Source: Ptiloglossa arizonensis (Eukaryota > Arthropoda > Insecta > Hymenoptera > Colletidae). From it: a stretch of DNA of 64,000 nt. The notes below the pieces were generated by a model that was not told the DNA's origin, searched no databases, and worked only from the letters and a program-made list of their open reading frames with translations. Location: contig NW_027478390.1 in the NCBI RefSeq assembly GCF_051014685.1, positions 1,772,501 through 1,836,500 of the forward strand, in the 5' to 3' direction. The position numbers and the translations under genes were made by a program. Below are positions 11,101-31,989 of this stretch, piece by piece (position 1 is the stretch's first letter; the number at the start of each line of letters is the position of its first letter).

Positions 11101-12586
11101 CACCGTTGTAATCGGGCGAGTTTCTGTTTTCAGATGCAACAGGAATTTCTCGCGTTCGTCAATCCGTTTGCGAGATATGGGAGTTTGAAGTTATGGAATG
11201 GTTGAGAAACCATCAAAATTTTCGCAGGTCTGATACTCGAGACCAATAACTACAATGGCCTAGGGGAAAAATACACATACCGTTGTAATCGGGCGAGTTA
11301 CTACATTCAGATGCAGCAGGAATTTCTCGAGTTCGTCAATCCGTTCGCGAGATATAGGAGTCTGAAGTGAAGGAATGATTGATAAACCATCAAAATGTTC
11401 GCAATTCTGATACTCGAAACCAATAACTACAATGGCCTAGGGGAGAAACACACATACCGTTGTAATCGGGCAAGTTTCTTCTTCCAGATGCAACAGGAAT
11501 TTCTCGATTTCCTCAATCCATTCGCGAGATATAGGAGTTTGAAGTGAAGGAATGTTTGAGAGACCATCAAAATTTTCGCAAGTCTGATACCCGAAACCAA
11601 TAACTACATTGGCCTAGGGCAAAAATACACATAACGTTGTAATCGGGCGAGTTTCTGATTTCAGATGCAACAGGAATTTCTCGAGTTCGTCAATCCGTTT
11701 GCGAGATATGGGAGTTGGAAGTTAAGGAATGGTTGAGAAACCATCAAAATTTTCGCAGGTCTGATACTCGAGACCAATAACTACAATGGCCTAGGGGAAA
11801 AATACACATACCGTTGTAATCGGGCGAGTTTCTACTATCAGATGCAGCAGGAATTTCTCGATTTCCGCAATCCGTTCGCGAGATATGGGAGTTTGAAGTG
11901 AAGGAATGGTAGAGAAACCATCAAAATTTTCGCAAGTCTGATACTCGAAACCAATAACTACTATGGCCTAGGGCAAAAATAAACATACCGTTGTAATCGG
12001 GCGAGTTTCTTCTTTCAGATGCAACAGGAATTTCTCGAGTTCGTCAATCCGATCGCGAGGTATGGGAGTTTGAAGTTAAGGAATGGTAGAGAAACCATCA
12101 GAATTTTCGCAATTCTGACACTCGAAACCAATAACTACTATGGCCTAGGGCAAAAATACACATACCTTTGTAATCGGGCGAGTTTCTGTTTTCAGATGCA
12201 ACAGGAATTTCTCGAGTTCGTCAATCCGTTTGCGAGATATGGGAGTTGGAAGTTAAGGAATGGTTGAGAAACCATCAAAATTTTCACAAGTCTAATACTC
12301 GAAACCAACAACTACAATGGCCTAGGGGAAAAATACACACACCGTTGTAATTGGGCGAGTTTCTGTTTTCAGATGCAACAGGAATTTCTCGAGTTCGTCA
12401 ATCCGTTTGCGAGATATGGGAGTTTGAAGTTAAGGAATGGTTGAGAAACCATCTGAATGTTCGCAATTCTGATACTCGAAACCAATAACTACAATGGCCT
12501 AGGGGAAAAATACGCACACCGTTGTAATCGAGCGTGTTTCTTCTTTCAGATGCAACAGGAATTTCTCGATTTCCTCAATCCGTTCG
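7038..12586 (+). repeat. 20-monomer (3,540-bp) repeat with embedded 10-mer periodicity
   Basis: About 2.0 kb at 7,038-9,046 recurs at 10,578-12,586, offset 3,540 bp (20 x 177). Both copies share private variants such as atacgcacaccgttgtaatc with cgagcgtgtttc (near 8,970 and 12,510) and aattttcacaagtctaatac followed by ccaacaactac. Blocks starting near 8,479, 10,249 and 12,019 also repeat at 1,770 bp (10 monomers). The first 3,540-bp unit overlaps the end of the 11-mer block, so the array shows layered rounds of unequal exchange. Confidence 0.8.
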
Positions 12587-13779
12587 CGAGATATGGGAGT
12601 TTGAAGTGAAGGAATGTTAGAGAAACCATCAAAATTTTCGCAAGTCTGATACTCGAAACCAATAACTATTATGGCCTAGGGCAAAAATAAACATACCGTT
12701 GTAATCGGGCGAGTTTCTTCTTTCAGATGCAACAGGAATTTCTCGAGTTCGTTAATCCGTTCGCGAGATATGGGAGTTTGAAGTTAAGGAATGGTAGAGA
12801 AACCATCAAAATTTTCGCAAGTCTGATACTCGAAACCAATAACTACTACGGCCTAGGGCAAAAATACACATACCGTTGTAATCGGGCGAGTTTCTGTTTT
12901 CAGATGCAACTGGAATTTCTCGAGTTCGTCAATCCGTTTGCGAGATATGGGAGTTTGAAGTTAAGGAATGGTTGAGAAACCATCAAAATTTTTGCAAGTC
13001 TGATCCTCGAAACCAATAACTACAATGGCCTAGGGGAAAAATACACATACCGTTGTAATCGGGCGAGTTTCTACTTTCAGATGCAGCAGGAATTTCTCGA
13101 TTTCCACAATCCGTTCGCGAGATATAGGAGTTTGAAGTTAAGGAATGGTTGAGAAACCATCTGAATGTTCGCAATTCTGATACTCGAAACCAATAACTAC
13201 AATGGCCTAGGGCAAAAATACACACACCGTTGCAATCGGGCGAGCTTCTACTTTCAGATGCAACAGGAATTTCCCGATTTCCTCAATCCGTTCGCGAGAT
13301 ATAGGAGCTTGAAGTGAAGGAATGGCAGAGAAACCATCAAAATTTTCGCAAGTGTGATACTCGAAACCAATAACTACATTGGCCTAGGGCAAAAATACAC
13401 ATACCTTTGTAATCGGGCGAGTTTCTGTTTTCAGATGCAACAGGAATTTCTCGAGCTCGTCAATCCGTTTGCGAGATATGGGAGTTGGAAGTTAAGGAAT
13501 GGTTGAGAAACCATCAAAATTTTCGCAAGTCTGATACTCGAATCCAATAACTACAATGGCCTAGGGGAAAAATACACATACCGTTGTAATCGGGCGAGCT
13601 TCTACTTTCAGATGCAACAGGAATTTCTCGACTTCGTCAATCCGTTCGCGAGATATGGGAGTTTGAAGTTAAGGAATGGTTGAGAAACCATCAAAATTTT
13701 CGCAAGTCTGATCCTCGAAACCAATAACTACAATGGCCTAGGGGAAAAATACACAAACCGTTGTGATCGGGCGAGTTTC

Positions 13780-14280
13780 TACTTTTAGATGCAACAGGAA
13801 TTTTTCGCATTCATTAATCCGCTCGCAAGATATGGGAGTTTGGATTTAAGCAATGTTTGAGGAACCATACAAATTTTCGCAATTCTGATGCTAGTAACGA
13901 ATAACTAGAATGGCCTAGAGTAAAAGTACACATACCGTTGTAATCGGGGGAGTTTCTGCTTTCAGATGCAACAGGAATTTCTCGAGTTCGTCAAACCTTT
14001 CGCGAGATATAGGAGTTTGAAGTGAAGGAATTGTTGAGAAACCATCAAAATTTTCGCAAGTCTGATACTCGAAACCAATAACTGGAATGGCCTAGGGGAA
14101 AAATACACATACCGTTGTAATCGGGCGAGTTTCTACTTTCAGATGCAACAGGAATTTTTCGGATTCATTAATCCGCTCAGGAGATATGGGGGTTTGGATT
14201 TAAGAAATATATGAGGAACTATACAAATTTTCGAAATTCTGATGCTTGAAACGAATAACCAGAATTGCCTAGGGCAAAAG
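13780..14280 (+). repeat. Divergent satellite monomers of subfamily C
   Basis: Two monomers here, separated by an ordinary one, differ from the bulk at many fixed positions: ttcattaatccgctc, gtttggatttaag, aaccatacaaattttcg, and gaaacgaataac with agaatggcc or agaattgcc. The same variant set appears in the right array in inverted orientation (near 25,710-25,840, 27,495-27,610, 28,020-28,140, 28,555-28,670, 30,495-30,610, 30,850-30,975, 31,210-31,320, 41,805-41,930 and 42,160-42,270). It is therefore a real subfamily rather than random decay. Confidence 0.8.
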
Positions 14281-14664
14281 TACACATACCGTTGTAATCG
14301 GGCGAGTTTCTGCTTTCAGATGCAAAAAGGAATTTCTCTAGTTCGTCAATCCGTGCGCGAGATATGGGCGTTTGAAGTTAAGGAATGGTTGAGAAACCAT
14401 CAAAATTTTCGCAAGTCTGATACTCGAAACCAATAACTACAATGGCCTAGGGGAAAAATACACATACCGTTGTAATCGGGCGAGTTTCTTCTTCCAGATG
14501 CAACAGGAATTTCTCGATTTCCTCAATCCGTTCGCGAGATATAGGAGTTTGAAATTACGGAATGGTTGAGAAACCACAAAAATTTTCGCATGTCTGATAC
14601 TCGAAACCAATAACTACAATGGCCTTGGGGAAAAATACACATACCGTTGTAATCGGGCGAGTTT

Positions 14665-16567
14665 CTACTTTCAGATGCAATAGGAATTTTTGGGTTTGGT
14701 CAATCCGCTCGCGAGGTATGGGAATTTGAAGCTAAGAAATGGTTAAGAAGGCAACAAAATTTTCGCACTTCTGCTGCTCCAAACGCTTAACCAGAATGGC
14801 CCAGGGCAAGAACACATTCCGTTGTAATCGGGCGAGTGTCTACTTTCAGACGCAGCAGGAATTTTTGGATTTGGTCAAACGGTTCGCGAGATATGGGAGT
14901 TTGAAGCTAAGAAATGGTTGAGAAGACAACAATTTTTTCGCACTTCTGCTGTTCCAAACGCTTAATCAGAATGGCCTAGGGAAAAAATACTCATACCGAT
15001 GTAATCGGGCGAGTTTCTGCTTTCAGATGCAAAAAGGAATTTCTCTAGTTCGTCAATCCGTTCGCGAGATATGGGCGTTTGAAATTAAGGAATGGTTGAG
15101 AAACCATCAAAATTTTCGCAAGTCTGATACTCGAAACCAATAACCACAATGGCCTAGGGGAAAAATACACATACCGTTGTAATCGGGAGAGTTTCTACTA
15201 TCAGATACAACAGAAATTTTACGGATTCGTCAATTCCGTTCGCGAGATATGGGAGTTTGAAGTTAAGGAATGGTTGATAAACCATCAAAATTTTCGCAAG
15301 TCTGATACCCGAAACCAATAACTACAATGGCCTAGGGGAAAAATACACATACCGTTGTAATCGGGCGAGTTTCTACTTTCAGATGCAACAGGAATTTCTC
15401 GATTTCCTCAATCCGTTCGCGAGATATAGGAGTTTGAAGTGAAGGAATGTTTGAGAAACCATCAAAATTTTCGCAAGTCTTATACTCGAAACCAATAACT
15501 GGAATGGCCTAGGGGAAAAGTACACATACCGTTGTAATGGGGCGCGTTTCTACTTTCAGATGCAACAGGAATTTCTCGAGTTCGTCAGTCCGTTCGCGAG
15601 ATATAGGAGTTTGAAGTGAAGGAATGGTTGAGAAACCATCAAAATTTTCGCATGTCTGATACTCGAAACCAATAACTACAATGGCCTAGGGGAAAAATTA
15701 TCCTTTGTAATCGGGCGAGTTTCTGCTTCCAGATGCAACAGGAATTTTTGGGTTTGGTCAATCCGTTTGCGAGATATGGGAGTTTGAAGCTAAGAACTGG
15801 TTGAGAAGACAACAAATTTCTCGCACTTCTGCTGCTCCAAACGCGCTACATGAACGGCCTAGGGAAAAAATACACATACCGTTGTAATCGGGAGAGTTCC
15901 TACTTTCAGACGAAATAGGAATCTTTGGGTTTGGTGAATCCTTGCGCGATGTATGGGAGTTTGAAGCTAAGGAACAGTTGAGAAGGCATCAAATTTTGCG
16001 CATTTCTGCTGCTCCAAACGCCTAACCAGAATGGCCTAGGGAAAAAATACACTTACCGTTGTAATCGGGCGAGTTTCTACTTTCAGATGCAATAGGAATT
16101 TTTGGGTTTGGTCAATCCGTTCGCGAGATATGGGAGTTTGAATCTAAGAAACGGTTGAGTAGGCAACAAATTTGTCGCACTTCTGCTGCTCCAAACGCTT
16201 AACCAGAATGGCCTAGGGAGAAAATACTTATATCGTTGTAATCGCGCGAGTGTCTACTTTCAGATGCAATAGGAATTTTTGGGTTTGGTCTATCCGTTCG
16301 CGAGATATGGGAGTTTGAAGCTAAGAAATGGTTGAGAAGACAACAAATTTTTCGCAATTCTGCTGCTCCAAACGCTTAACCAGAATGGCCTAGGGAAAAA
16401 ATACACATACCGTTGTAATCGGGCGAGCTTCTACTTTCAACCGCAGCAGAAATTTTTGGGTTTGGTCAAACCGTTCGCGAGATATGGGAGTTTGAAGCTA
16501 ATAAACGGTTGAGAAGACAACAAATTTTTCGCACTTCTCCTGCTCCAAACGCTTAACCATAATGGCC
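14665..16567 (+). repeat. Zone enriched in satellite subfamily B, next to the core
   Basis: Most monomers here share diagnostic blocks absent from the bulk array: tttttgggtttggtcaatc, gaagctaagaaatggttgag, aggcaacaaatttttcgcac and tctgctgctccaaacgctta, with cctagggaaaaaatac. A few ordinary A-type monomers are interleaved (about 15,005-15,715). The same B type flanks the minisatellite on the other side (24,305-25,545, inverted), so B monomers mark the inner edge of both arrays. The CENP-B-like motif is kept in most of them. Confidence 0.85.
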
Positions 16568-18179
16568 GTTTCTCCGTTTCTCGGTTTCTCCGCTTCTCCG
16601 TCTCTCCGTTTCTCCGTTTCTCCGTTTCTCCGTTTCTCGGTTTCGCTGTTTCTCCGTTTCTCCGTTTCTCCGTTTCTCGGTTTTTCCGTTTCTCCGCTTT
16701 TCCGTTTCACAGTTTTTTGTTCGTTTCTCCATTTATTTCTCCGATTCTCCGTTTCTTTCTTCGTTTCTCCGTTTCTTTCTTTGTTTCTTCGTTTCTTTCT
16801 TCGTTTCTCCATTTATTTTTCCGTGTCTTCGTTTCTTTGTTCGTTTCTCCGTTTCTTTGTTCGTTTCTCCGTTTCTTTGTTGGTTTCTCCGTTTATTTCT
16901 TCGTTTCTCCATTTATTTCTCCGATTCTCCGTTTCTTTCTTCGTTTCTCCGTTTATTTGTTCGTTTCTCCATTTACTTCTCCGTTTGTCCGTTTCTTTCT
17001 TCATTTCTCCGTTTCTTTCTTCGTTTCTTCGTTTCTTTCTTCGTTTCTCCATTTATTTCTCCGTGTCTTCGTTTCTCCGTTTCTTTGTTCGTTTCTCCGT
17101 TTCTTTGTTCGTTTCTCCGTTTCTTTGTTCGTTTCTCCGTTATTTGGTCGTTACACCGTTTCTTTGTTCGTTTCTCCGTTTCTTTGTTCGATTCTCCGTT
17201 TCTTTGTTCGTTTCTATATTTCTTTGTTCGTTTCTCCGTTTCTTTGTTCGTTTCCCCGTTTCTTTGTTCGTTTCTCCGTTTCTTTCTCCGTTTCTCCGTT
17301 TCTTTCTTCGTTTGTCCGTTTCTTTGTTCGCTTTTCTATTTGTTTCTTCGTTTCTCCATTTATTTCTCTGTTTCTCCGTTTCTTTGCTCGATTCTCCCTT
17401 TCTCTGTTCGTTTCTCCGCTCCTTTCTTCATTTCTCCGTTTCTTTCTTTGTTTCTCCGTTGCTTTGTTCGTTTCTCCGTTTATTTCATCATTTCTCCATT
17501 TATTTCTCCGATTCTCCGTTTCTTTCTTCGTTTCTCCGTTTATTTGTTCGTTTCTCCATTTACTTCTCCGTTTCTCCGTTTCCTTGTCCGCTTCTCCGTT
17601 TCTCCGTTTCTTTGTTCGTTTCTCCGTTCCTTTCTTCGTTTCTCCGTTTATTTCTTCGTTTGTCCATTTACTTCTCCGTTTCTCCGTTTCTTTCTTCGTT
17701 TCTCTGTTTCTTTGTTCGTTTTTCCGTTTTTTGGTCGTTTCTCCGTTTCTTTGTTCGTTTCTCCGTTTCATTCTTCGTTTCTCCCTTTATTTCTTCATTT
17801 CTGCATTTATTTCTCCGATTCCCCGGTTCTTTCTTCGTTTCTCCGATTATTTGTTCGTTTCTCCATTTATTTCTCCGTTTCTCCGTTTCTTTGTCCGTTT
17901 CTCCGTTTCTCCGTTTCTTTCTTCGTTTCTCCGTTTCTTTCTTCGTTTCTTCGTTTCTTTCTTCGTTTCCCGTTTCTTTGTTCGTTTCTCCGTTTCTTTG
18001 TTCGTTTCTCCGTTTCTTTCTTTGATTCTCCGTTTCTTTCTTCGTTTCTTCGTTTCTTTCTTCGTTTCTCCGTTTCTTTCTTCGTTTCTCCGTTTCTTTC
18101 TTCGTTTCTCCGTTTCTTCCTTCGTTTCTTCGTTTCTCCGTTTCTCCTTTTCTCCGTTTCTCCGTTTCTTCGTTTCTAT
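16568..18179 (+). repeat. C/T-rich minisatellite (8-bp and 20-bp units), left arm
   Basis: The block starts abruptly after aatggcc of a B-type monomer. The first ~150 bp are close to pure gtttctcc octamers. The rest is mainly a 20-bp compound unit, cgtttctccgtttctttgtt, with ct/gt and atttattt variants. Very long open frames exist in several frames on both strands, because the unit has no stop codons. They encode low-complexity Phe/Ser/Leu/Val (plus) or Lys/Arg/Glu/Asn (minus) strings and are not genes. It ends at the NUMT boundary. The strand asymmetry (pyrimidines on plus) is strong and flips in the right arm. Confidence 0.95.
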
Positions 18180-18180
18180 T

Positions 18181-18220
18181 AAATGATTATAATATTTATA
18201 ATTTCTATTATAAATCATTT
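18181..18220. other. Imperfect hairpin at the minisatellite/NUMT junction
   Basis: aaatgattataata at 18,181 can pair with tattataaatcattt ending at 18,220 around an AT-rich loop, with one bulged base. The same hairpin, slightly changed, is present inverted at about 23,420-23,460 in the other arm. It could be a breakpoint feature or a remnant of a mitochondrial tRNA preceding nad2. I could not fold it into a recognisable tRNA. Confidence 0.5.
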
Positions 18221-19005
18221 GATCTATATTTAAATTAGACACTAATACTCTAAATACATATTTAATATATTTTTTATTCTCTTTAGCCTCCAGAAGAATT
18301 TTATTTATACTATTTACTGTATATAATAATTTACACAGAATCGGAAATAAATCTAATTATTTATTTATAATAATTATTTTTTATTCACTTATTTTAAAAA
18401 TTGGGATGTACTCTTTAAATGTTCGATTCATTTCTTTAATTTATTCATTAAATTGAATTAATCTATTCTTTATAATAACTTTAATAAAATTAATCCCTAT
18501 AATTATTATAGAACTCATATTAAAATTTAATAATGAAATTTATTTTATTTGCCTAATTAATGTAATTATTGCCCCTATCATTTGCTTAAATAAAAAATCA
18601 ATCAAAATAATTATAGGATATTCATCTATTATTCAAACATCTATTATAGTTATTTTATGAATAATTAACAAAAATACATTTTTAACATATTTCATTTTAT
18701 ATTCAATAATTTCTTCAATTTTAGTTTTTATATTTAAAACAATAAAGATTTTCTTCCTTATTTCTTCCTTATTTAATATATTAACCTCTAATAAAAGAAA
18801 AATGATTTTATACTCAATAATTATTATGTACCCAAATGTCCCACCTATAGCACTCTTTATACTGAAATGAATCGTCCTAGAAACATTAATAAATTCAAGA
18901 ATAAAATTTATACTTTTAATAAATGTATATCTTTTTAGAAGATTAATTACATCATGAAATTATTTAAAAATATCCTTCTTATATTTTTTCCCTTCAATTA
19001 AATAA
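18214..19005 (+). pseudogene. nad2: nad2 fragment (NADH dehydrogenase subunit 2), NUMT copy
   Basis: ND2 is a membrane subunit of respiratory complex I, encoded in mitochondrial DNA. Read in the invertebrate mitochondrial code, the frame is open for about 263 codons from ATC at 18,214 to TAA at 19,003-19,005. Insect ND2 is usually ~320-340 residues, so the N-terminus is short. Recognisable landmarks are LKIGMYSLNVRF (where LKxGxxPFHFWF is usual), LMKLIPM, NKKSMKMIMGYSSI (the usual NQTSLRKIMAYSSI) and NVPPMALFMLKW near the C-terminus. The histidine and proline of the PFHFW motif are altered, which suggests decay. No promoter or nuclear-code frame supports expression: TGA codons would truncate it in the cytosol. 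cox1 follows 118 bp downstream. Confidence 0.85.
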
Positions 19006-19123
19006 AAAATATATAACAAAATTAACCTTAATTTTCTAAACTATTATCTATTTATAACTTTTTTAATATTTATATTTACATTTATGATATACTGGTTATA
19101 TTAATTTTTAACATAATTAATAT
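19006..19123 (+). other. AT-rich gap between nad2 and cox1 remnants
   Basis: In most insects trnW, trnC and trnY (about 195 bp) lie here. Only 118 bp remain, and I see no convincing cloverleaf or anticodon arm for any of the three. The most likely reading is deletion and decay after insertion, or a rearranged tRNA order in the donor mitochondrial genome. Confidence 0.6.
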
Positions 19124-20649
<1,526 letters not shown>

Positions 20650-20653
<4 letters not shown>

Positions 20654-20712
20654 TATGGCAGATTAGTGCATGAATTTAAGATTCATTTATAAAATTTAAT
20701 ATTTTTATTAAA
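20650..20712 (+). tRNA. trnL2: tRNA-Leu(UAA) copy within the NUMT
   Basis: The sequence between cox1 and cox2 folds as mitochondrial tRNA-Leu(UUR). The acceptor is TTAATAT with TTATTAA (last pair mismatched) plus discriminator A. The D-arm region is ggcagattagtgc. The anticodon stem is ATGAA/TTCAT around the 7-nt loop TTTAAGA, with anticodon TAA at 20,677-20,679. Position and the tatggcagattagtgca signature are typical of insects. It overlaps the cox1 stop by a few bases, as in real mtDNA. In the nucleus it lacks recognisable A and B box promoters and is presumably not expressed. Confidence 0.88.
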
Positions 20713-20713
20713 A

Positions 20714-21366
20714 ATGTCCCATTGAAAAATAATTAATTTCCAAGACCCCAATTCGCCATATGCCGATAATTTAAATCTTTTTCACAACTTCACAATAATT
20801 ATAATAATTATAATCTCTTCCTTAACTCTAATAATTATATTAGATATTTTTACTAATAAATTTATCAATCGATTTTTACTTAAAAATCATCATATTGAAA
20901 TTTTATGAACTTTACTCCCAATAATAATTTTAGGAGTAATTGCACTTCCTTCTTTAAAAACCCTATATTTTATTGATGAACTATGAATACCCGTATACTT
21001 AACAATCAAATCAATTGGGCACCAATGATATTGATCCTATGAATACCCAGAATTTAATCATTTAAATTTTGACTCCTATATAGATAAAGATTTAAATAAT
21101 ATTTACATTTTTCGTCTCCTAGAAAAATGTTGTGAATATTAACAACATCAAACGACGTAATTCACTCTTGAACTGTTCCGTCTTTAGGCTTAAAAATAGA
21201 CTCAGTACCAGGGCGAATTAACCAAATAAATTTAATTACTAATCGACCTGGAGTATTTTTCGGACAATGTTCTGAAATCTGCGGAGCTAATCACAGATTT
21301 ATGCCAATTGTTGTGGAAAGAACTAATTATTCAAACTTTATTCATTGAATTAACAACCAAAATTAA
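20714..21366 (+). pseudogene. cox2: cox2 pseudogene with internal frameshifting deletion, NUMT copy
   Basis: COX2 carries the CuA centre of complex IV. The copy starts at ATG 20,714 (MSHWKMINFQDPNSPYADN) and runs in frame through the two membrane helices to GHQWYWSYEYPEF and FRLLE, then hits TAA at 21,140-21,142. The rest continues in another frame, from TTSNDVIHSWTVPSLG to a TAA at 21,364-21,366. It includes the CuA region [16 protein letters not shown]. The segment normally between LLE and the TTS-DVIHSW block is missing, so a few tens of bases were lost near 21,125-21,135, with a net shift of reading frame. Both halves are otherwise well preserved, including the CuA cysteines and histidine. 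Confidence 0.95.
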
Positions 21367-21404
21367 ATTTTAACCTACTCATATAATATTTAATTAAATC
21401 AAAT

Positions 21405-21466
21405 CATTAGATGTCTGACAAAAGAATTGATTTTTTAATTCAAATTATAGTAATAAATTACTTCAC
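21405..21466 (+). pseudogene. trnK: Truncated tRNA-Lys at the right end of the NUMT
   Basis: After a 38-bp AT-rich gap, cattagatgtctgac matches the 5' half of insect mitochondrial trnK, which normally follows cox2. A GAATT/AATTC anticodon stem encloses an 8-nt T-rich loop (one base longer than normal) with a TTT anticodon. The TpsiC side reaches ttacttc at about 21,464. The expected tctaatg acceptor half is absent and the sequence changes character, so this is the likely NUMT breakpoint. Confidence 0.75.
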
Positions 21467-21475
21467 TTTTTATTT

Positions 21476-21765
21476 TAAAACTTTAAGAATCATCTCTTTA
21501 CTTCGAAGCTTGATCAAAATTAATTTCTATAAGTTCTTAATCATTTGTAATGCATCAATAAGATGAATAATGTTCGATTAATATTGGGAACATGCATGAA
21601 TGTTAGTAAAACTCGCGGAAATGAATAAACATTCACCGAAACTATTCGCCTTCGCAGATTTTGCAATATCTTGACGTTTATTTATCATAATTATTAACAA
21701 TTGTCGTAGTACCATAGTTTAAATAATTATTAACAATGCCCTAGTATAAATAAAGGCTTAAAATA
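21476..21765 (+). repeat. Duplicated non-mitochondrial element, copy A
   Basis: This stretch is repeated in direct orientation at 22,016-22,305, ~541 bp away. The best-kept part is 21,628-21,700 against 22,171-22,243, with only 3 differences in 73 bases. The ~60 bases before it show about 90% identity and the ends are less similar. It ends with a TATA-like box. It is less AT-rich than the NUMT and has no mitochondrial similarity that I recognise. It may be a duplicated promoter, a transposon end or an LTR fragment; no terminal repeats or coding domains settle this. Confidence 0.8.
21745..21752 (+). promoter_or_regulatory. TATA-box-like TATAAATA, copy A
   Basis: TATAAATA followed by aagg resembles a strong insect TATA box. 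TCATT and TCATC candidate initiators lie 20-27 bp downstream, near 21,766-21,775, a little closer than the usual ~30 bp. A short open frame starts at 21,795. In this AT-rich context a chance match is quite possible. Retention in the second copy at 22,288 is the main argument for it. Confidence 0.35.
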
Positions 21766-21794
21766 TCATTTCATCGAAATATTCATTGCTCGCG

Positions 21795-21905
21795 ATGGAA
21801 TTTTTCGTTGAGATCAAACTGACATTCTCAAGGCTACACGTATCGATGATCGATTCACAAGCGTTCATCGCTATGATTGTTGTATCTAGAAAAACGATTA
21901 ATTGA
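21795..21905 (+). CDS. Possible 36-codon ORF downstream of TATA copy A (unrecognised)
   Basis: ATG at 21,795 opens a 36-codon frame ending TGA at 21,903-21,905. The predicted peptide begins MEFFVEIKLTF, has a modest hydrophobic run near its end (AFIAMIVV) and no recognisable domain or cysteine pattern. It lies 50 bp after a TATA-like box, and aataaa polyadenylation-like hexamers occur near 21,920 and 21,991. Length alone is not significant. It could be a first exon, a transposon relic or chance. Confidence 0.15.
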   Translation: MEFFVEIKLTFSRLHVSMIDSQAFIAMIVVSRKTIN

Positions 21906-22015
21906 ATTTCAGCGCTTTTAAATAAAAAATGCAACTACTACGCGTATTGTGTAAATTATAAAAATTAAGCAAATGTTAAATTAGTGTATTTAATAAACAA
22001 TTGTTACTTTCCCTG

Positions 22016-22305
22016 CTATAAAACTTTACGAAACACGTTTTACTTTGAATCTCGATCCAAATTAATTTCTATGAGGTACTTAATCATTTTCAATGCATAA
22101 ATAGGATGCACATTGTTCGATTAATATTGGGAACATACATAAATGTTAGTAACAATGGCGGAAATGAACAAACATTCACCGAAACCATTAGCCTTCGCAG
22201 ATTTCGCAATATCTTGACGTTTATTTATCATAATTATTAACAACCGCCGTTGGACCGTAGATTAAACAATTTTTCACAATGTTCCGGTATAAATAATGGC
22301 TATAA
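22016..22305 (+). repeat. Duplicated non-mitochondrial element, copy B
   Basis: This is the second copy of the ~290-bp element described at 21,476, in the same orientation. It keeps the conserved 73-bp core (22,171-22,243) and the TATAAATA box, but the sequence downstream of the box has diverged and the short ORF of copy A is not retained. The two copies make a tandem with a ~541-bp period. Confidence 0.8.
22288..22295 (+). promoter_or_regulatory. TATA-box-like TATAAATA, copy B
   Basis: This is the same octamer, at the same place relative to the duplicated core as in copy A, followed by atgg. An aaaataaaag polyadenylation-like hexamer lies about 75 bp downstream. No open frame of note follows on the plus strand. 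Confidence 0.3.
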
Positions 22306-22475
22306 AGCCATCAATTTCTTGAAGTATTTGGTTAGATCGAACAAATACAATCGAAGAAACCGTGCGATAAAATAAAAGAATATTTCTCTACATATCGGAA
22401 TTATAGTTTGTATGTATGCAAATATATTCTGAACCCGCAATTACAAATCCCTGTAACGTTGTAATTACATGGGTT

Positions 22476-22487
22476 GCCATCTAGTGG
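22476..22487 (-). promoter_or_regulatory. Insect CTCF-like motif 1
   Basis: gccatctagtgg is, on the minus strand, ccactagatggc. This fits the shared CTCF core CCASYAGRKGGC known from flies and vertebrates. It lies in the unique spacer, not in the satellite. Binding is inferred from the motif only. Confidence 0.4.
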
Positions 22488-22575
22488 AGAAAGGGTTAAA
22501 CTACACTTAAGGAATGAAAACACCTGGCGGAGAAACGCCCAAGTTTGTCGAGGAATTGTTCTAATTTCCACAAAT

Positions 22576-22584
22576 AGATGGCGC
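22576..22584 (+). promoter_or_regulatory. Insect CTCF-like motif 2
   Basis: agatggcgc matches the right half of the Drosophila CTCF consensus (AGRKGGCGC) exactly. It is about 100 bp from motif 1 and in the opposite orientation, so the pair faces divergent directions. A chance match to a 9-mer is possible. Confidence 0.35.
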
Positions 22585-22732
22585 GACAAGTACAATTTAC
22601 CGACATTAGAGATAAGTATTATATTACCATTTGTATGATATTCCCTACCGTACGATAAAATAAATAAATACTTTTGTACAAACTTTTGTATGTTTCATCT
22701 TTCGAATAAATGTAAAATTAAACCTTCCACGG

Positions 22733-23460
22733 TAAATTTTATTCTTGAATTTATTAATGTTTCTAGGACGATTTATTTTAGTATGAAGAGTGCTATAGGT
22801 GGGAAATTTGTGTACATAATAATTATTGAGTATAAAATAATTTTTCTTTAATTAGAGGTTAATATATTAAATAAGGAAGAAGAGTTAATCTTTATTATTT
22901 TAAATACAAAAATTAAAATTAAAGAAATTATTTAATACAAAATGAAATATGTTAAAAATGTATTTTTGTTAATTATTAATAAAATAACTATAATAGATAT
23001 TTGTATAACAGATGAATATCCTATAATTATTATGATTGACTTTTTTGTTTAAGCAAATGATAGGGGCAATAATTACATTAATTAAGCAAATAAAATAAAT
23101 CTCATTATTAAATTTTAATATGAGTTCTATAATAATTATAGGGATTAATCTTATTAAAGTTATTATAAAGAATAGATTAATTCAATTTATTGAATAAATT
23201 AAAGAAATGAATCGAACATTTAAGGAGTACATCCCAATTTTTAAGATAAGTGAAAAAAAAATAATTATTATAAATAAATAATTAGATTTATTTCCGATTC
23301 TGTGTAAATTATTATATACAGTAAATAGTAAAAATAAAATTCTTCTGGAGGCTAAAGAGATTAAAAAATATATTAAATATGTATTTAGAGTATTAGTGTC
23401 TAATTTAACTATAGGTCAAATGATTTATAATAGAAATTATAAATATTATAATCATTTAAT
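22733..23460 (-). pseudogene. nad2: Second, inverted and more decayed nad2 5' segment
   Basis: Reverse-complement similarity to 18,181-18,910 is continuous. Compared with the left copy it has a TAA stop (plus-strand tta at 22,773-22,775) where the left copy has TGA/Trp in the MLKW motif, a small deletion near 22,880, a one-base insertion near 23,041, and C-to-T and G-to-A type changes. The reading frame is therefore broken while the left copy stays open. It carries no usable product in either code. Confidence 0.88.
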
Positions 23461-24304
23461 CGAAACGGAGAAACGGAGAAACGGAGAAACGGAGAAACGA
23501 ACAAACGAAGGAAGAAACGGAGAAACGAAGAAAGAAACGGAGAAACGAAGAAAGAAACGGAGAAACGAAGAAAGAAACAGAGAAACGAAGAAATAAATGG
23601 AGAAACGAAGAAATAAACGGAGAAACGAAGAAAGAAACGGAGAAACGAAGAAAGAAACGGAGAAACGAAGAAATAAACGGAGAAACGAACAAAGAAACGG
23701 AGAAACGATGAAAGAAGCGGAGAAACGAACAAAGAAACGAAGAAACGAGCAAAGAAACGGAGAAACGAACAAAGAAACGGAGAAACAAACAAAGAAACGG
23801 GAAACGAAGAAAGAAACGGAGAAACGAAGAATGAAATGGAGAAACGAAGAAAGAAACGGAGAAACCAACAAAGAAACGAAGAAACGGAGAAACGAACAAA
23901 GAAACGGAGAAACGAAGAAAGAAACGGAGAAACGAAGAAATAATTGGAGAAACGAAGAAATAGTCGGAGAAACGAACAAAGAAACGGAGAAACGAACACA
24001 GAAACGGAGAAACCAACAAAGAAACGAAGACACGGAGAAATAAATGGAGAAACGAAGAAAGAAACGAAGAAACGAAGAAAGAAACGGAGAAACGAAGAAA
24101 GAAACGGAGAATCGGAGAAATAAATGGAGAAACGAACAAAAAACGGTGAAACGGAGAAACGGAGAAACGGAAAAACCGAGAAACGGAGAAAGGGAGAAAC
24201 GGAGAAACAGAGAAACAGAGAAACCGAGAAACGGAGAAACGGAGAAACGGAGAAACGGAGAAACGGAGAGACGGAGAAACGGAGAAACCGAGAAACGGAA
24301 AAAC
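23461..24304 (-). repeat. A/G-rich minisatellite, right arm (inverted copy)
   Basis: The plus strand reads as gaaacgga octamers and a 20-bp unit (gaaacggagaaacgaacaaa), the reverse complement of the left minisatellite. The order is mirrored too: 20-bp units near nad2, purer octamers from about 24,140 to 24,304, then a B-type satellite monomer starting at ggccattctgg. Long frames on both strands are low-complexity artefacts. The length differs from the left arm by roughly a factor of two. Confidence 0.95.
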
Positions 24305-25545
24305 GGCCATTCTGGTTAAGCGTTTGGAGCAGCAGAAGTGCGAAAAATTTGTTGCCTACTCAACCATTTCTTAGCTTCAAACTCCCATATCTCGCGAACG
24401 GATTGGCCAAACCCAAAAATTCCTATTGCGTCTGAAAGTAGAAGCTCGCCCGATTACAAAGGTATGTCTATTTTTCCCTGGGCCATTCTGGTTAAGCGTT
24501 TGGAGCAGCAGAAGTGCGAACAATTTATTGCCTTCTCAACCATTTCTTAGCTTCAAACTCCCATACCTCGCGAACGGTTTGACCAAATCCAAAAATTTCT
24601 GCTGCGTCTGAAAGTAGAAACTCGCCCGATTACAACGGTATGAGTATCTTTTCCCTAGGCCATTCTGGTTAAGTATTTGGAGCAGCAGAAATGGGCAAAA
24701 TTTGTTGCCTACTCAACCATTTCTTAGCTTCAAACTCCCATATCTCGCGAACGGTTTGACCAAACCCAAAAATTCCTGCTGCGTCTGAAAGTAGACACTA
24801 GCCCGATTACAACGGTATGTGTATTTTTTCCCTAGGCCATTTTGGTTAAGCGTTTGGAGCAGCAGAATTGCGAAAAATTTGTTGGCTTCTCAAACATTTC
24901 TTAGATTCAAACTCCCATATCTCGCGAACGGATTGACGAAACCCAAAAATTCCTGTTGCGTGTGAAAGAAGAAACACTCCCGATTACAACGGTGTGTGTA
25001 TTTTTTCCCTAGGCCATTCTGGTTAAGCGTTTGCAGCAGCAGAAGTGCGAAAAATTTGTTGCCTTCTCAACCATTTCTTAGCTTCAAACTTCCATATCTC
25101 GCGAACGGATTGACCAAACCCAAAAATTCCTGCTGCGTCTGAAAGTAGAAACTCGCTCGATTGCAACAGAATGTGTATTCTTTCCCTAGGCCACTCTGGT
25201 TAAGTATTTGGAGCAGCAGAAATGCGCAAAATTTGTTGCCTACTCAACCATTTCTTAGCTTCAAACTCCCATATCTCGCGAACGGATTGACCAAACCCAA
25301 AAATTCCTATTGCGCCTGAAAGTAGAAGCTCGCCCGATTACAAAGGTATGTCTATTTTTCCCTGGGCCATTCTGGTTAAGCGTTTGGAGCAGCAGAAGTG
25401 CGAACAATTTATTGCCTTCTCAACCATTTCTTAGCTTCAAACTCCCATATCTCCCGAACCGATTGACCAAACCCAAAAATTCCTGTTGCATCTGAAAGTA
25501 GAAACTCGCCCGATTAGAACGGTATGTGTATTTTTGCCCTAGGCC
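24305..25545 (-). repeat. Subfamily B monomers at the inner edge of the right array
   Basis: About seven monomers carry the B signature (ctggttaagcgtttggagcagc, ttgaccaaacccaaaaattc, caaccatttcttagcttcaa). At about 25,545 the array switches to A-type monomers with ggtttcgagtatcag. This mirrors the B zone at 14,665-16,567 and shows that the inverted symmetry extends into the satellite. Confidence 0.85.
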
Positions 25546-28500
25546 ATTGTGGTAATTGGTTTCGAGTATCAGACTTGCGAATATTTTGATGGTTTCTCAA
25601 CCAGTCCTTAATTTCAAACTCCCATATCTCGCGCACGGAATGACGAACTGGGGAAATTCCTGTTGCATCTGATAGCAGAAACACCCCCGATTCCAACGGT
25701 ATGTGTACTTTTGCTCTAGGCCATTCTAGTTATTCGTTTCAATCATCCGAATTGCGAAAATTTGTATGGTTCCTCAAGCATTTCTTAAATCCAAACTCCC
25801 ATATCTTGAGAGCGGATTAATGAATCCGAAAAATTCCTGTTGCATCTGAAAGTAGAAACTCGTCCGATCACAACGGTATGTGAATTTTTCCCCAAGGCCA
25901 TTGTAGTTATTGGTTTCGGGTATCAGATTTGCGAAAATTTTGATGGTTTCCCAACCGTTCCTTCACTTCAAACTCCCATATCTCGCGAACGGATTGTGGA
26001 AATCGAGAAATTCCTGCTGCATCTGAGAGTAGAGACTCGCCCGATTACAACGGTATGGGTATTTCTCCCCTAGGCCATTTTAGTTACTGGTTTCGGGTAT
26101 CAGACATGCGAATATTTTGATGGTTTCTCAACCATTCCTTAAATTCAAACTCCCATATCTCGCGAACGGATTGAGGAAATCGAGAAATTCCTGCTGCATT
26201 TGAAAGTAGAAACTCGCCCGATTACAACGGTATGTGTGTTTCTCCCCTAGGCCATTGTAGTTACCGGTTTCGGGTATCAGACATGCGAAAATTTTGATGG
26301 TTTCTCAACCATTCCTTAACTTCAAACTCCCATATCTCGCGAACGGATTGAGGAAATCGAGAAATTCCTATTGCATTTGAAAGTAGAAACTCGCCCGATT
26401 ACAACGGTATGTGTATTTCCCCCCTAGGCCATTGTAGTTATTGGTTTCGAGTGTCAGACTTGCGAAAATTTTGATGGTTCCTCACCCACTCCTTAACTTC
26501 AAACTCCCATATCTCGCGAACGGACTGACGAACTCGAGAAATTCCTTTTGCGTCTGAAAGTAGAAACTCTCCCGATTACAACGGTGTATGTATTTTTCCC
26601 CTAGGCCATTGTAGTTATTGGTTTCCAGTATCAGACATGTGAAAATTTTGACGGTTTGTCAACCATTCCTTAACTTCAAACTCCTATATCTCGCGAACGG
26701 ATTGAGGAAATCGAGAAATTCCTGTTGCATTTGAAAGTAGAAACTCGCCCGATTACAACGGTATGTGTATTTCCCCCCTAGGCCATTGTAGTTATTGGTT
26801 TCGAGTGTCAGACTTGCGAAAATTTTGATGGTTTCTCAACCATTCCTTCAATTCAAACTCCCATATCTCGCAAACGGATTGTCGAATCCGAAAAATTTCT
26901 GTTGCATCTGAAAGTAGAAAATGTCCCGATTACAACAGTATGTGTATTTTTCCCATAGGACACTGTAGTTATTGGTTTCGGGAATCAGACTTGCGAAAAT
27001 TTTGACGGTTTCGAAACCATTCCTTCACTTCAAACACCTACATCTCGCGAACGGATTGAGGAAATCGAGAAATTCCTGTTGCATCTGAAAGTAGAAACTC
27101 GCCCGATTACGACGGTATGGGTATTTCTCCCCTAGGCCATTTTAGCTACTGGTTTCGGGTATCAAACATGCGAAAATTTTTATGGTTTCTCAACCATTCC
27201 TTAACTTCAAACTCCCATATCTCGCGAGCGGATTAATGAATCCCAAAAATTCCTGTTGCATCTGAAAGTAGAAACTCGCCCGATCACAACGGTATGTATA
27301 TTTTTCCCCTAGGACATTGTAGTTATTGGTTTCGGGTATCAGACTTGCGAAAATTTTGTTGGTTTCTCAACCATTCCATAATTTCAAACTCCCATATCTC
27401 GCGAACGGAATGAGGAACTCGAGAAATTCCTGTTGCATCTGAAAGCATAAACTCCCCCGATTACAACGGTATGTGTACTTTTACCCTAGGCCATTCTAGT
27501 TATTCGTTTCAAGCATCAGAATTGCGAAAATTTGTATGGTTCCTCAATCATTGCTTAAATCCAAACTCCCATATCTTGCGAGCGGATTAATGAATGCGAA
27601 ATATTCCTGTTGCATCTGAAAGTAGAAACTCGCCCGATCACAACGGTATGTGTATTTTTCCCCTAGGCCATTGTAGTTATTGGTTTCGGGTATCAGACTT
27701 GCGAAAATTTTGATGGTTTCTCAACCATTCCATAACTTCAAGCTCCCATATCTCGCGAACGGATTGACGAATCCGAAAAATTTCTGTTGCATCTGAAAGT
27801 AGAAGCTCACCCGATTACAACGGTATGTGTATTTTTCCCCTAGGCCATTGTAGTTATTGGTTTCGAGCATCAGACTTGCGAATATTTTGATGGTTTCTCA
27901 ACCAGTCCTTCACTTCAAACTCCCACATCTCGCGAACGGAATGAGGAACTCGAGAAATTCCTGTTGCATCTGAAAGCAGAATCTCCCCCGATTACAACGG
28001 TATGTGTACTTTTACCCTAGGCCATTCTAGTTATTCGTTTCAAGCATCAGAATTGCGAAAACCTGTATGGTTCCTCAAACATTGCTTAAATCCAAACTCC
28101 CATATCTCGCGAGCGGATTAATGAATCCGAAAAATTCCTGTTGCATCTGAAAGTAGAAACTCGCCCGATCACAACGGTATGTATATTTTTCCCATAGGAC
28201 ACTGTAGTTATTGGTTTCGGGTATCAGACTTGCGAAAATTTTGATGGTTTCGAAACCATTCCTTCACTTCAAACACCTATATCTCGCGAACGGATTGAGG
28301 AAATCGAGAAATTCCTGTTGCATCTGAAAGTAGAAACTCGCCCGATTACGACGGTATGTGTATTTCTCCCCTAGGCCATTGTATTTATTGGTTTCGAGTA
28401 TCAGACTTGCGAAATTTTGATGGTTTCTCAACCAGTCCTTCACTTCAAACTCCCACATCTCGCGAACGGAATGAGGAACTCGAGAAATTCCTGTTGCATC

Positions 28501-31500
28501 TGAAAGCAGAATCTCCCCCGATTACAACGGTATGTGTACTTTTGCCCTAGGCCATTCTAGTTATTCGTTTCAAGCATCAGAATTGCGAAAATTTGTATGG
28601 TTCCGCAAACATTTCTTAAATCCAAACTCCCATATCTCGCGAGCGGATTAATGAACCTGAAAAATTCCTGTTGCATCTGATAGTAGAAACTCGCCCGATC
28701 ACAACGGTATGTGTATTTTTCCCCTAGGTCATTGTAGTTATTGGTTTCGGTTATCAGACTTGCGAAAATTTTGATGGTTTCTCAACCATTCCATAACTTC
28801 AAACTCCCATATCTCGCGAACGGATTGAGGAAATCGAGAAATTCCTGCTGCATCCTAAAGTAGAAACTCGCCCGATTACAACGGTATGTGTATTTCTCCC
28901 CTAGGCCATTGTAGTTACTGGTTTCGCGTATCAGACATGCGAAAATTTTGATGGTTTCTCAACCATTCCTTAACTTCAAACTCTCATATCTCGCGAACGG
29001 ATTGAGGAAATCGAGAAATTCCTGCTGCATCTGAAAGTAGAAACTCGCCCGATTACAACGGTATGTGTACTTTTGCCCTAGGCCATTGTTGTTATTGGTT
29101 TCGAGTATGCGACTTGCGAAAATTTTGATGGTTTCTCACCCATTCCTTAACTTCAAACTCCCATATCTCGCGAACGGACTGACGAACTCGAGAAATTCCT
29201 TTTGCGTCTGAAAGTAGAAACTCTCCCGATTACAACGGTGTATGTATTTTTCCCCTAGGCCATTGTAGTTATTGGTTTCCAGTATCAGACATGTGAAAAT
29301 TTTGACGGTTTCTCAACCATTCCTTAACTTCAAACTCCTATATCTCGCGAACGGATTGAGGAAATCGAGAAATTCCTGTTGCATTTGAAAGTAGAAACTC
29401 GCCCGATTACAACGGTATGTGTATTTCCCCACTAGGCCATTGTAGTTATTGGTTTCGAGTGTCAGACTTGCGAAAATTTTGATGGTTTCTCAACCATTCC
29501 TTCACTTCAAACTCCCATATCTCGCAAACGGATTGACGAATCCGAAAAATTTCTGTTGCATCTGAAAGTAGAAACTGTCCCGATTACAACAGTATGTGCA
29601 TTTTTCCCCTAGGCCATTGTTGTTATTGGTTTCGAGTATCAGTCTTGCGAAAATTTTGATGGTTTCGAAACCATTCCTTCACTTCAAACTCCCATATCTC
29701 GCGAACGGATTGAGCAAATCGAGAAATTCCTGCTGCATCTGAAAGTAGAGGCTCGCCCGATTACAACGGTATGGGTATTTCTCCCCTAGGCCATTTTAGT
29801 TACTGGTTTCGGGTATCAGACATGCGAAAATTTTTATGGTTTCTCAACCATTCCTTAACTTCAAACTCCCATATCTCGCGAGCGGATTAATCAATCCGAA
29901 AAATTCCTGTTGCATCTGAAAGTAGAAACTCGCCCGATCACAACGGTATGTATATTTTTCCCCTAGGACATTGTAGTTATTGGTTTCGGGTATCAGACTT
30001 GCGAAAATTTTGATGGTTTCTCAACCATTCCATAACATCAAACTCCCATATCTCGCGACCGGATTGAGGAAATCGAGAAATTCCTCCTCCATCTGAAAGT
30101 AGAAACTCGCCCGATTATAACGGTATGTGTAGTTCTCCCCTAGGCCATTGTATTTACTGGTTTCGGGTATCAGACTTGCGAAAATTTTGATGGTTTCGAA
30201 ACCATTCCTTCACTTCATACTCCTATATCTCGCGAACGGATTGAGGAAATCGAGAAATTCCTGTTGCATCTGAAAGTAGAGACTCGCCCGATTACAACGG
30301 TGTGTGTGTTTCTCCCCTAGGCCATTGTAGTTATTGGTTTCGAGTATCAGACTTGCAAAAATTTTGATGGTTTCTCAACCATTCCATAATTTCAAACTCC
30401 CATATCTCGCGAACGGAATGAGGAACTCGAGAAATTCCTGTTGCATCTGAAAGCAGAAACTCCCCCGATTACAACGGTATGTGTACTTTTACCCTAGGCC
30501 ATTCTAGTTATTCGTTTCAAGCTTCAGAATTGCGAAAATTTGTATGGTTCCACAATCATTGCTTAAATCCAAACTCCCATATCTTGCGAGCGGATTAATG
30601 AATGCGAAATATTCCTGTTGCATCTGAAAGTAGAAACTCGCCCGATCACAACGGTATGTGTATTTTTCCCCTAGGCCATTGGAGTTATTGGTTTCGGGTA
30701 TCAGACTTGCGAAAATTTTGATGGTTTCTCAACCATTCCTTAACTTCAAACTCCCATATCTCGCGAACGGATTGAGGAAATCGAGAAATTCCTGCTGCAT
30801 CTGAAAGTAGAAACTCGCCCGATTACAACGGTATGTGTACTTTTGCCCTAGGCCATTCTAGTTAGTCGTTTCAAGCATCAGAATTGCGAAAATTTGTATG
30901 GTTCCTCAAACATTTCTTAAATCCAAACTCCCATATCTCGCGAGCGGATTAATGAATCCGAAAAATTCCTGTTGCATCTGATAGTAGAAACTCGCCCGAT
31001 CACAACGATATGTGTATTTTTCCCCTAGGCCATTGTAGTTATTGGTTTCGGGTATCAGACTTGCGAAAATTTTGATGGTTTCTCAACCATTCCATAACTT
31101 CAAGCTCCCATATCTCGCGAACGGATTGACGAATCCGAAAAATTTCTGTTGCATCTGAAAGTAGAAGCTCACCCGATTACAACGGTATGTGTATTTTTCC
31201 CCTAGGCCATTCTAGTTATTCGTTTCAAGCATCAGAATTGCGAAAACCTGTATGGTTCCTCAAACATTGCTTAAATCCAAACTCCCATATCTCGCGAGCG
31301 GATTAATGAAACCGAAAAATTCCTGTTGCATCTGAAAGTAGAAACTCGCCCGATCACAACGGTATGTATATTTTTCCCATAGGACACTGTAGTTATTGGT
31401 TTCGGGTATCAGACTTGCGAAAATTTTGATGGTTTCGAAACCATTCCTTCACTTCAAACTCCTATATCTCGCGAACGGATTGAGGAAATCGAGAAATTCC

Positions 31501-31989
31501 TGTTGCATCTGAAAGTAGGAACTCGCCCGATTACGACGGTATGTGTATTTCTCCCCTAGGCCATTGTATTTATTGGTTTCGAGTATCAGACTTGCGAAAT
31601 TTTGATGGTTTCTCAACCATTCTTTAACTTCAAAGTCCCAAATCTCGCGAACGGATTGACGAATTCGAAAAATTTCTGTTGCATCTGAAAGTAGAAACTC
31701 TATCTATTAAAACGGTATGTGTATTTCTCCCCTAGGCCATTGTAGTTACTGTTTTCGTGTATCAGAATTGCGAAAATTTTGACGGTTTCTCAACCATTCC
31801 TTAACCTCAAACTCCCAAATCTCCCGAACGGATAGACTAACTCGAGAAATTCCTGTTGCATCTGAGAGTAGAAACTCTCCCGATTACAACGGTTTGTGTA
31901 TTTTTCCCCTAGGCCATTGTAGTTATTGGTTTCGCGTAACTGACTTGCGACTATTTTGATGGTTTCTCAACCATTCCTTAACTTCAAAC

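What the first reader, a model, noticed from the sequence alone, without database searches (positions are those of the whole stretch)
14665..25545. Satellite orientation switch around a mirrored minisatellite/NUMT core
The satellite runs plus on the left and minus on the right. Moving inward on both sides the order is A-type monomers, B-type monomers, pyrimidine/purine minisatellite, then nad2. Both satellite/minisatellite junctions fall at the same ggcc of a monomer. The arms differ by several percent and the minisatellite by a factor of two, which argues against a simple assembly fold-back. Inverted satellite blocks with a unique core could promote cruciform structure or act in pericentromere organisation; that part is inference.
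Basis: partly seen in the sequence, partly recalled or inferred. Interest (0 to 1): 0.8.

Follow-up and report, generated by a model that had tools for sequence, protein, structure and literature searches.

The report
Mirror-image satellite DNA around mitochondrial insert
In a bee-like genome, repetitive DNA runs in opposite directions on the two sides of a nuclear copy of mitochondrial genes, and the mirror junction at its centre occurs about 1,460 times in the assembly, which makes it a traceable case of how large mirror-image blocks of heterochromatin can arise and spread.

Summary
A 177-bp satellite runs plus (1-16567), then minus (24305-64000). Between lie a mirrored minisatellite (1,611 and 844 bp), mirrored nad2 (94.7% identical) and a 3.8-kb unmirrored spacer (rest of nad2, cox1, cox2, 1,268 bp nuclear repeat). 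It is neither a local oddity nor a likely fold-back artefact. Ten further full copies on six contigs were compared. The 30-bp fusion junction (22732/22733) matches 1,463 places in the 999-Mb assembly, control 0; a cox1 word matches 422. In 17 of 17 core-facing satellite/minisatellite borders compared, the border is at the same monomer position. Best reading: a mitochondrial insert in a minisatellite array was joined to nuclear repeat DNA; one inverted duplication (fold-back or sister-chromatid fusion) made the palindrome, which was amplified in heterochromatin. One copy shows a left-to-right arm conversion tract. Longer, non-palindromic inserts exist elsewhere. Closest known kind: the Tribolium 'macro-dyad symmetry', called exclusive to that genus in 2026; here the inversion site is of organelle origin. 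A cruciform is unlikely with a 3.8-kb spacer. A centromere role is untested. Limits: no reads, species unnamed, few of the junction places read.

The parts
1..16567 (+). 177-bp satellite array, left arm (mostly A-type; B-type innermost from about 15708, and two B monomers near 14.6-15.0 kb)
16568..18177 (+). pyrimidine minisatellite (8/20-bp units), left arm
18178..18910 (+). mirrored part of nad2 pseudogene, left arm
   Evidence: table 5 translation
18911..21464 (+). unmirrored mitochondrial DNA: rest of nad2, cox1 (about 19121-20652, two in-frame TAA), cox2 (about 20714-21370, frame broken near 21123)
   Evidence: at C63 and C98 mitochondrial DNA continues past the equivalent of 21464
21465..22732 (+). 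nuclear repeat segment ('nuc') with an internal direct repeat (21476-21783 and 22019-22328, 83.7%)
22732..22733 (.). palindrome fusion junction nuc|inverted nad2; the 30-bp junction matches 1,463 places in the assembly
22733..23460 (-). mirrored nad2 piece, right arm
23461..24304 (-). minisatellite, right arm; both ends resemble those of the left arm, interior shorter
24305..64000 (-). 177-bp satellite array, right arm (B-type 24305-25516, then A-type with B blocks at 32048-34009 and 43043-44608)

Best explanation
A heterochromatic macro-dyad repeat made from a mitochondrial insert. Steps: (1) a long mitochondrial segment (nad2 through nad3 and beyond) entered a minisatellite array [supported: C63 has minisatellite in the same orientation on both sides of a longer insert]. 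(2) The insert was cut after cox2 and joined to a nuclear repeat [junction seen in 6 of 6 copies fetched with flanks]. (3) One inverted duplication joined position 22732 of that repeat to inverted nad2 at 18910, copying nad2, minisatellite and satellite to the other side; mechanism most likely fold-back of a broken, resected end or fusion of unequally broken sister chromatids [inferred from a single-copy spacer contiguous with the left arm]. (4) The palindrome was amplified and dispersed through heterochromatin by tandem and segmental duplication [1,463 junction places shown; route of spread inferred]. (5) Arms and copies go on exchanging sequence by gene conversion and unequal exchange [one clear arm tract shown; a second likely]. 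It most likely has no sequence-specific function; the core is an inert hinge that travels with the tandem repeats.
For: Same two nad2 arms and single core in 10 further full copies on six contigs, in sequence groups 97.3-99.9% alike. In 11 left and 11 right arms, 4 sites are fixed between left and right (415, 430, 683, 694), and the unrooted arm tree parts right arms from left arms (plus the one-armed C19) with 83% support, so the palindrome probably predates the spread. Core-facing satellite/minisatellite border at the same monomer position, to within a base, in 17 of 17 arms. Fusion junction in 1,463 places, control 0; in my longer fetched loci and the window the pattern hits once per palindromic core (12 of 12, with a second core on C66) and not in one-armed C19. 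Longer non-palindromic insert at C63, and at C98 as far as read (3 kb); other sequence instead of inverted nad2 after the nuclear repeat at C4:3062468 and C11:3821226. Conversion: the two near-identical IIIa copies differ in the right arm at 10 sites, all within 18-312, and at all 10 the C20 copy equals its own left arm. Spacer 3,822 bp; human fold-back duplications have a median of 3,428 bp (passages of PMC3907307).
Against: Microhomology at the fusion is at most 2 bp (TA), judged against two loci, and is within chance. C4/C11 could be secondary losses of the right arm instead of the earlier state. The arm tree is unrooted, support is moderate and conversion blurs it, so a single origin is likely but not proved. 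The four group-I copies have collinear flanks and could include haplotype or assembly duplicates. In the one densely repeated unit that I sampled on C4 the core is short (minisatellite by about 1.1 kb from the junction), and the cox1 word has only 422 places, so many of the 1,463 junctions are not the full 5.3-kb core. Satellite flanks on both sides were seen in only 5 of 12 stretches (window, C459, C23, C69, C252); elsewhere one or both arms were read only into minisatellite. No reads were available.
Confidence: 0.7

Rival explanations
1. The mirror order is favoured because it matters: macro-dyad satellite blocks shape (peri)centromeric chromatin, and the conserved hinge and borders are kept by selection, as proposed for Tribolium.
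For: Conserved inversion site (1,463 places) and border (17 of 17 compared), as reported for T. madens (PMC13081366, passages). Related repeats at scaffold ends opposite the telomere in 8 of 16.
Against: Copying of one ancestral structure explains the same conservation without selection. Arm lengths vary freely; on C23 the minisatellite after one core fills 8 of 8 probes over about 140 kb; some cores are cut or interrupted. No CenH3 data.
Confidence: 0.12
2. A mobile element made or spread the palindrome: the 1,268-bp nuclear segment is a transposon whose end was joined to the sister chromatid.
For: The 40 best of 2,746 candidates all cover the segment 1-1268, many on chromosome-scale scaffolds; inverted partners (85-88%) beside several copies.
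Against: In 6 of 6 copies fetched with flanks the segment is preceded by the same cox2 end, so its constant left edge comes from shared descent; in 2 of 6 the right side goes on as other sequence, in C4 as related repeat. I saw no terminal inverted repeat on comparing the two ends by eye.
Confidence: 0.08
3. Assembly artefact: the assembler folded one satellite/minisatellite arm back on itself.
For: Satellite and minisatellite blocks are hard to assemble; contig C23 begins inside a copy; four group-I copies are nearly identical.
Against: nad2 arms differ by 5.3%, minisatellite by a factor of two; groups differ by 1-3% yet share the junctions; 1,463 places, in both orientations.
Confidence: 0.03
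4. Two independent events placed oppositely oriented satellite/minisatellite/nad2 stretches on the two sides of a mitochondrial insert.
For: None found.
Against: Both outer borders (satellite|minisatellite, minisatellite|nad2) are at the same base on both arms; the first also in 17 of 17 arms.
Confidence: 0.02

Closest known systems
Macro-dyad symmetries of satellite DNA in Tribolium madens, T. freemani and T. castaneum (PMC13081366; I saw abstract and passages)
   Same: Kilobase-scale inverted subarrays of two intermingled tandem repeats; conserved inversion sites in thousands of places; conserved transition borders; setting in putative (peri)centromeric heterochromatin.
   Different: Here the host is bee-like, the hinge is a mitochondrial/nuclear core (5.3 kb with cox1 and cox2, or shorter) instead of a degenerate satellite subunit, and non-palindromic forms of the locus survive in the same genome. 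The paper says such symmetries were documented only in Tribolium.
Fold-back inverted duplications of the human genome (PMC3907307; I saw abstract and passages)
   Same: Inverted duplication with a single-copy spacer of a few kb (median 3,428 bp there, 3,822 bp here).
   Different: Those are nonrecurrent patient rearrangements, many next to terminal deletions; this one is old, inherited and amplified. Microhomology here is at most 2 bp and uncertain.
Y-chromosome palindromes with arm-to-arm gene conversion (recalled, no call)
   Same: Inverted arms round a spacer, sequence exchange between arms.
   Different: Arms here are about 95% alike in nad2 and hold no working genes that I saw; many copies instead of a few.
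Tandemly amplified nuclear mitochondrial insert, such as the cat Numt (recalled, no call)
   Same: A nuclear mitochondrial segment amplified with its surroundings.
   Different: Here it is mirrored, inside satellite and minisatellite DNA, with 422 places for a cox1 word.

Membership tests
satellite macro-dyad symmetry (Tribolium type) | inverted subarrays of tandem repeats over several kb | tested here: met
   minisatellite in opposite orientation on the two sides of the core in the window and in 9 of 11 fetched stretches (of the other two, one was not read on its left side and C19 is one-armed); satellite too on both sides in the window and 4 of these
satellite macro-dyad symmetry (Tribolium type) | inversion site conserved between many places | tested here: met
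   1,463 places with at most 2 mismatches in 30 bp, control 0
satellite macro-dyad symmetry (Tribolium type) | conserved transition zone between the two repeats | tested here: met
   same monomer position in 17 of 17 core-facing borders compared. Two other borders seen (C23:510713; C66:495506) face away from a core and were not compared; genome-wide count not obtained (unanswered searches)
satellite macro-dyad symmetry (Tribolium type) | many macro-dyads in succession in megabase blocks | tested here: inconclusive
   of the 100 junction places listed (exact matches on C1-C4), 51 of 52 on C4 are on one strand over 894 kb and 30 of 32 on C2 are on one strand over 589 kb; inside only one such unit was sampled, and it alternates minisatellite orientation
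satellite macro-dyad symmetry (Tribolium type) | confirmed on raw long reads | not testable with these tools
   no reads available
satellite macro-dyad symmetry (Tribolium type) | link to functional centromere (CenH3) | not testable with these tools
   no chromatin data; the Tribolium madens paper also calls its own link speculative
fold-back inverted duplication | single-copy spacer between inverted arms | tested here: met
   18911-22732, 3,822 bp; contiguous with the left arm as mitochondrial gene order
fold-back inverted duplication | inverted microhomology of 2-8 bp at the junction | tested here: inconclusive
   2 bp shared with the sequence that follows at C4 and C11
nuclear mitochondrial insert (NUMT) | mitochondrial gene order with decayed reading frames, embedded in nuclear DNA | tested here: met
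   nad2-cox1-cox2 in order; stops and a broken frame; cox1 82% to Colletes gigas
transposable element (for segment 21465-22732) | own ends with unrelated flanks | tested here: not met
   left flank is the same cox2 end in 6 of 6 copies fetched with flanks

The most novel reading that the evidence does not exclude
A fragment of mitochondrial DNA has become the conserved inversion hinge of a heterochromatic macro-dyad repeat that recurs about 1,460 times in a bee genome; the dyad order is itself favoured, through centromere organisation or because palindromes drive their own conversion and amplification, which would make macro-dyad satellite architecture convergent between beetles and bees.
Probability: 0.15. 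Interest if true: 0.9.

Novelty: new variant of a known kind. Interest (0 to 1): 0.7.

Why it matters
Macro-dyad satellite blocks were reported in 2026 as documented only in one beetle genus, and the passages that I saw give no account of how their inversion sites arose. Here the hinge is mitochondrial DNA of known gene order, so the order of events can be read: longer inserts, inserts joined to nuclear repeat, palindromes and short-core forms are all in one genome. That makes origin, spread and arm conversion of heterochromatic palindromes directly testable. It also shows that organelle DNA can become part of a heterochromatic repeat of several hundred copies or more, and it warns assemblers that such contigs may well be real.

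Tried and rejected
Xylocopa violacea as the source: rejected, because its assembly has 1,300 scaffolds and a 109-bp predominant satellite (PMC11589580, abstract and passages) while this one has 2,016 contigs and a 177-bp satellite.

tRNA and Rfam scans of 16000-25000 gave nothing useful (0 tRNA; one Rfam match at E 0.95, 22.5 bits against a cut-off of 44).

Segment 21465-22732 as a free transposon or foldback element (my idea) was dropped. An earlier count said 'C4 (x6)' for the continuing form; only one C4 copy (3062468) was read, four more on C4 and two on C6 are guessed from inverted partners, and C4:3433168 carries the palindrome junction.

My first monomer cutting caught only 51 monomers and was replaced. 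Search for a higher-order repeat: no strong regular one; one 10.6-kb duplication in the right array.

Counts of the core-facing satellite|minisatellite border, of the minisatellite|nad2 border, of the cox2|nuc junction and of the continuing form were asked for but not answered. A search with the stretch after cox2 of C63, meant to find a true mitochondrial contig for rooting, did not complete.

Literature: ten searches. I saw nothing in their listings on a palindromic NUMT-cored satellite or a NUMT repeat of this copy number; I opened five papers (abstract or passages only; of PMC13427858 one reference entry), and the library lacks most subscription journals.

Full report
WHAT IS THERE. The satellite in the window changes direction once. 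TRF gives a 177-bp unit plus-strand at 1-16533 and its reverse complement at 24339-64000. From both sides inward the order is satellite (B-type monomers innermost), pyrimidine/purine minisatellite, nad2. The mirrored nad2 pieces are 18178-18910 and 22733-23460, 94.7% identical over 734 aligned bases. The satellite borders lie at the same GGCC (16564-16567 and 24305-24308). The minisatellite arms are 1,611 and 844 bp; their outer and inner ends resemble each other, so the right arm has lost, or the left gained, inner units. Between the nad2 arms is an unmirrored 3,822-bp spacer: the rest of nad2, cox1, cox2 and 1,268 bp of nuclear repeat. The reading frames carry stops and a break, so this is a nuclear mitochondrial insert; its cox1 is nearest to bees (Colletes gigas 82%).

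NOT A SINGLE CASE. The window lies at C20:1772501-1836500 of a 998.67-Mb assembly of 2,016 contigs. The whole core occurs at ten further places that I compared, on six contigs (C20, C23, C66, C69, C252, C459). They fall into groups: I (four copies with the window, 99.7-99.9%), II (three, 99.8%), and four others, of which C20:1698k and C23:528k are 99.8% alike; between groups 97.3-98.8% (the first 77 bp of the C23:528k core were outside my stretch). A later search (32 of 3,351 candidates scored, so a lower bound) added C20:1961594 and C139:510535 in full and less complete copies on C139, C6 and C443. Groups I and II are 99-100% alike from about 20,200 on but 95-99% before it, a sign of recombination between groups. 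Flanks of group-I copies are collinear in part, with differences of whole monomers and lower identity further out.

HOW MANY. The 30-bp junction between the nuclear repeat and inverted nad2 matches 549 forward and 914 reverse places with at most two mismatches; the reversed control gives 0. In the window and my longer fetched loci the pattern hits once per palindromic core, 12 of 12, and not in the one-armed C19. A cox1 word matches 422 places, control 0. The two sets need not coincide. The output lists 100 of the 1,463 places, exact matches on C1-C4 only: 51 of 52 on C4 are on one strand over 894 kb (median spacing 12.6 kb), 30 of 32 on C2 over 589 kb (15.0 kb) (places with mismatches are not in these spacings). 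The one C4 unit that I sampled by four short stretches has minisatellite plus, nad2, the junction, minisatellite minus within about 1.1 kb, then minisatellite plus again: a short-core dyad. C66 holds a similar short core beside a full one.

WHERE. Of the 16 chromosome-scale scaffolds C1-C16 (32 ends, 400 bp each), 11 have a TTAGGTCTGGG-type telomere end, 13 have related satellite (79-92%), minisatellite or core at one end at least, and 8 have both. Against a continuous block: probes at C6:300, 500 and 1,000 kb and C10:17.5 Mb held none of these repeats, although C6 has copies at 24-197 kb and near 2.4 and 6.0 Mb. The telomere motif is reported from many aculeates (PMC10632776, one passage). 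On C23, twenty probes of 800 bp show minisatellite in 8 of 8 probes from 215 to 355 kb, satellite plus (375-410 kb, 3 probes), core I (422-427 kb), then satellite minus (450-510 kb, 4 probes). Block and direction changes thus occur at other places too; the NUMT core is one recurrent kind.

ORDER OF EVENTS. At C63 the insert runs on past cox2 for about 2 kb and then meets minisatellite in the same orientation as on its left side; at C98 mitochondrial-looking DNA fills the 3 kb read. No mirrored arm follows in the 5 and 3 kb read. By my reading of the letters (no search) the added genes are atp8, atp6, cox3 and nad3, with tRNA genes at C98. At C4:3062468 and C11:3821226 cox2 is joined to the nuclear repeat at the same base as in the window, but other sequence follows where the palindromes have inverted nad2; the two agree with each other for 110 bp at 95%, and in C4 related repeat goes on (2 of 6 copies fetched with flanks; the other four have the palindrome junction). 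The simplest order is: insert, join to the nuclear repeat, inverted duplication. The palindrome junction shares 2 bp with that other sequence, which is not more than chance. A single-copy spacer of a few kb contiguous with one arm is what fold-back of a broken end leaves: 766-70,466 bp, median 3,428 bp, in 21 sequenced human junctions (PMC3907307, passages). Fusion of unequally broken sister chromatids would look the same; I cannot tell them apart.

ONE ORIGIN, THEN EXCHANGE. In 11 left and 11 right arms, four sites are fixed differently between left and right, all in the spacer-side half (415, 430, 683, 694), and the unrooted tree parts the right arms (with the second C66 core) from the left arms and C19 with 83% support. 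So the palindrome is probably older than its spread. Copies C20:1698k and C23:528k differ in the right arm at ten sites, all between 18 and 312; at all ten the C20 right arm has the left-arm letter (over 1-414 it differs from its left arm at site 65 only), and beyond 312 it equals the C23 right arm. That is a conversion tract from a left-type arm; whether the donor was in cis cannot be told, since both left arms are identical where both were read. On C66 the left arm and the second core's arm are identical for 197 bp and then differ at 29 sites. The satellite next to the minisatellite ends at the same monomer position in 17 of 17 core-facing arms, though the satellite itself differs by up to 10%.

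WHAT IT DOES. I think most likely nothing sequence-specific: it is a recombination-built heterochromatic repeat whose core is an inert hinge. Shown: structure, junction count, non-palindromic forms, one conversion tract. Inferred: fold-back or sister fusion, route of spread. The cruciform idea is unlikely with 3.8 kb between the arms (general knowledge); short-core forms were not tested for it. A centromere role is open.

COMPARED WITH WHAT IS KNOWN. [quoted passage not shown] the authors state that it was documented only in Tribolium (PMC13081366, abstract and passages). Three of its features are met here, one is inconclusive, two cannot be tested. I found no report of a mitochondrial hinge or of such symmetry in a bee in the listings of my ten paper searches.

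LIMITS. No reads; the assembly is unnamed; group-I copies may include haplotypes; few of the 1,463 places were read; the genome search machine was mostly unavailable.

Noticed in passing
window 32500-38068 and 43099-48667: A 10.6-kb duplication inside the right satellite array (exact 80-mers at offset 10599); B-type blocks lie at or near the start of both.
   Followed up: partly
G000:C23:215000-355800: The pyrimidine/purine minisatellite alone fills 8 of 8 probes over about 140 kb, so it is a large repeat of its own.
   Followed up: partly
L022 (G000:C19:2035000-2038700): A one-armed relative: B satellite, minisatellite and 401 bp of nad2, then other DNA with a CTT-rich stretch and another mitochondrial-looking piece (my reading); a patchwork of inserts.
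   Followed up: partly
L055 (G000:C443:272800-274899) and L100 (G000:C11): Retroelement-like sequence follows the cut right nad2 arm on C443, and mariner-like sequence lies after the nuclear repeat on C11 (my reading, no family search). Three of four C443 copies share the same cut of the right arm.
   Followed up: no
G000 ends of C2, C3, C10, C13, C14 (L058, L059, L066, L089, L070): A second simple repeat, CGTATAA/CGTTATA-like, forms one end of these five scaffolds.
   Followed up: no
window 21123: cox2 lacks a net 31 bp here against the C252 and C66 copies, a marker that splits the 11 compared copies 9 to 2.
   Followed up: no
G000:C6 and G000:C443: Four copies each at about 30-74-kb spacing, with whole or cut right arms, whose hits skip the part between the two direct repeats of the nuclear segment; one copy of each was read there and has a single repeat unit.
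   Followed up: partly
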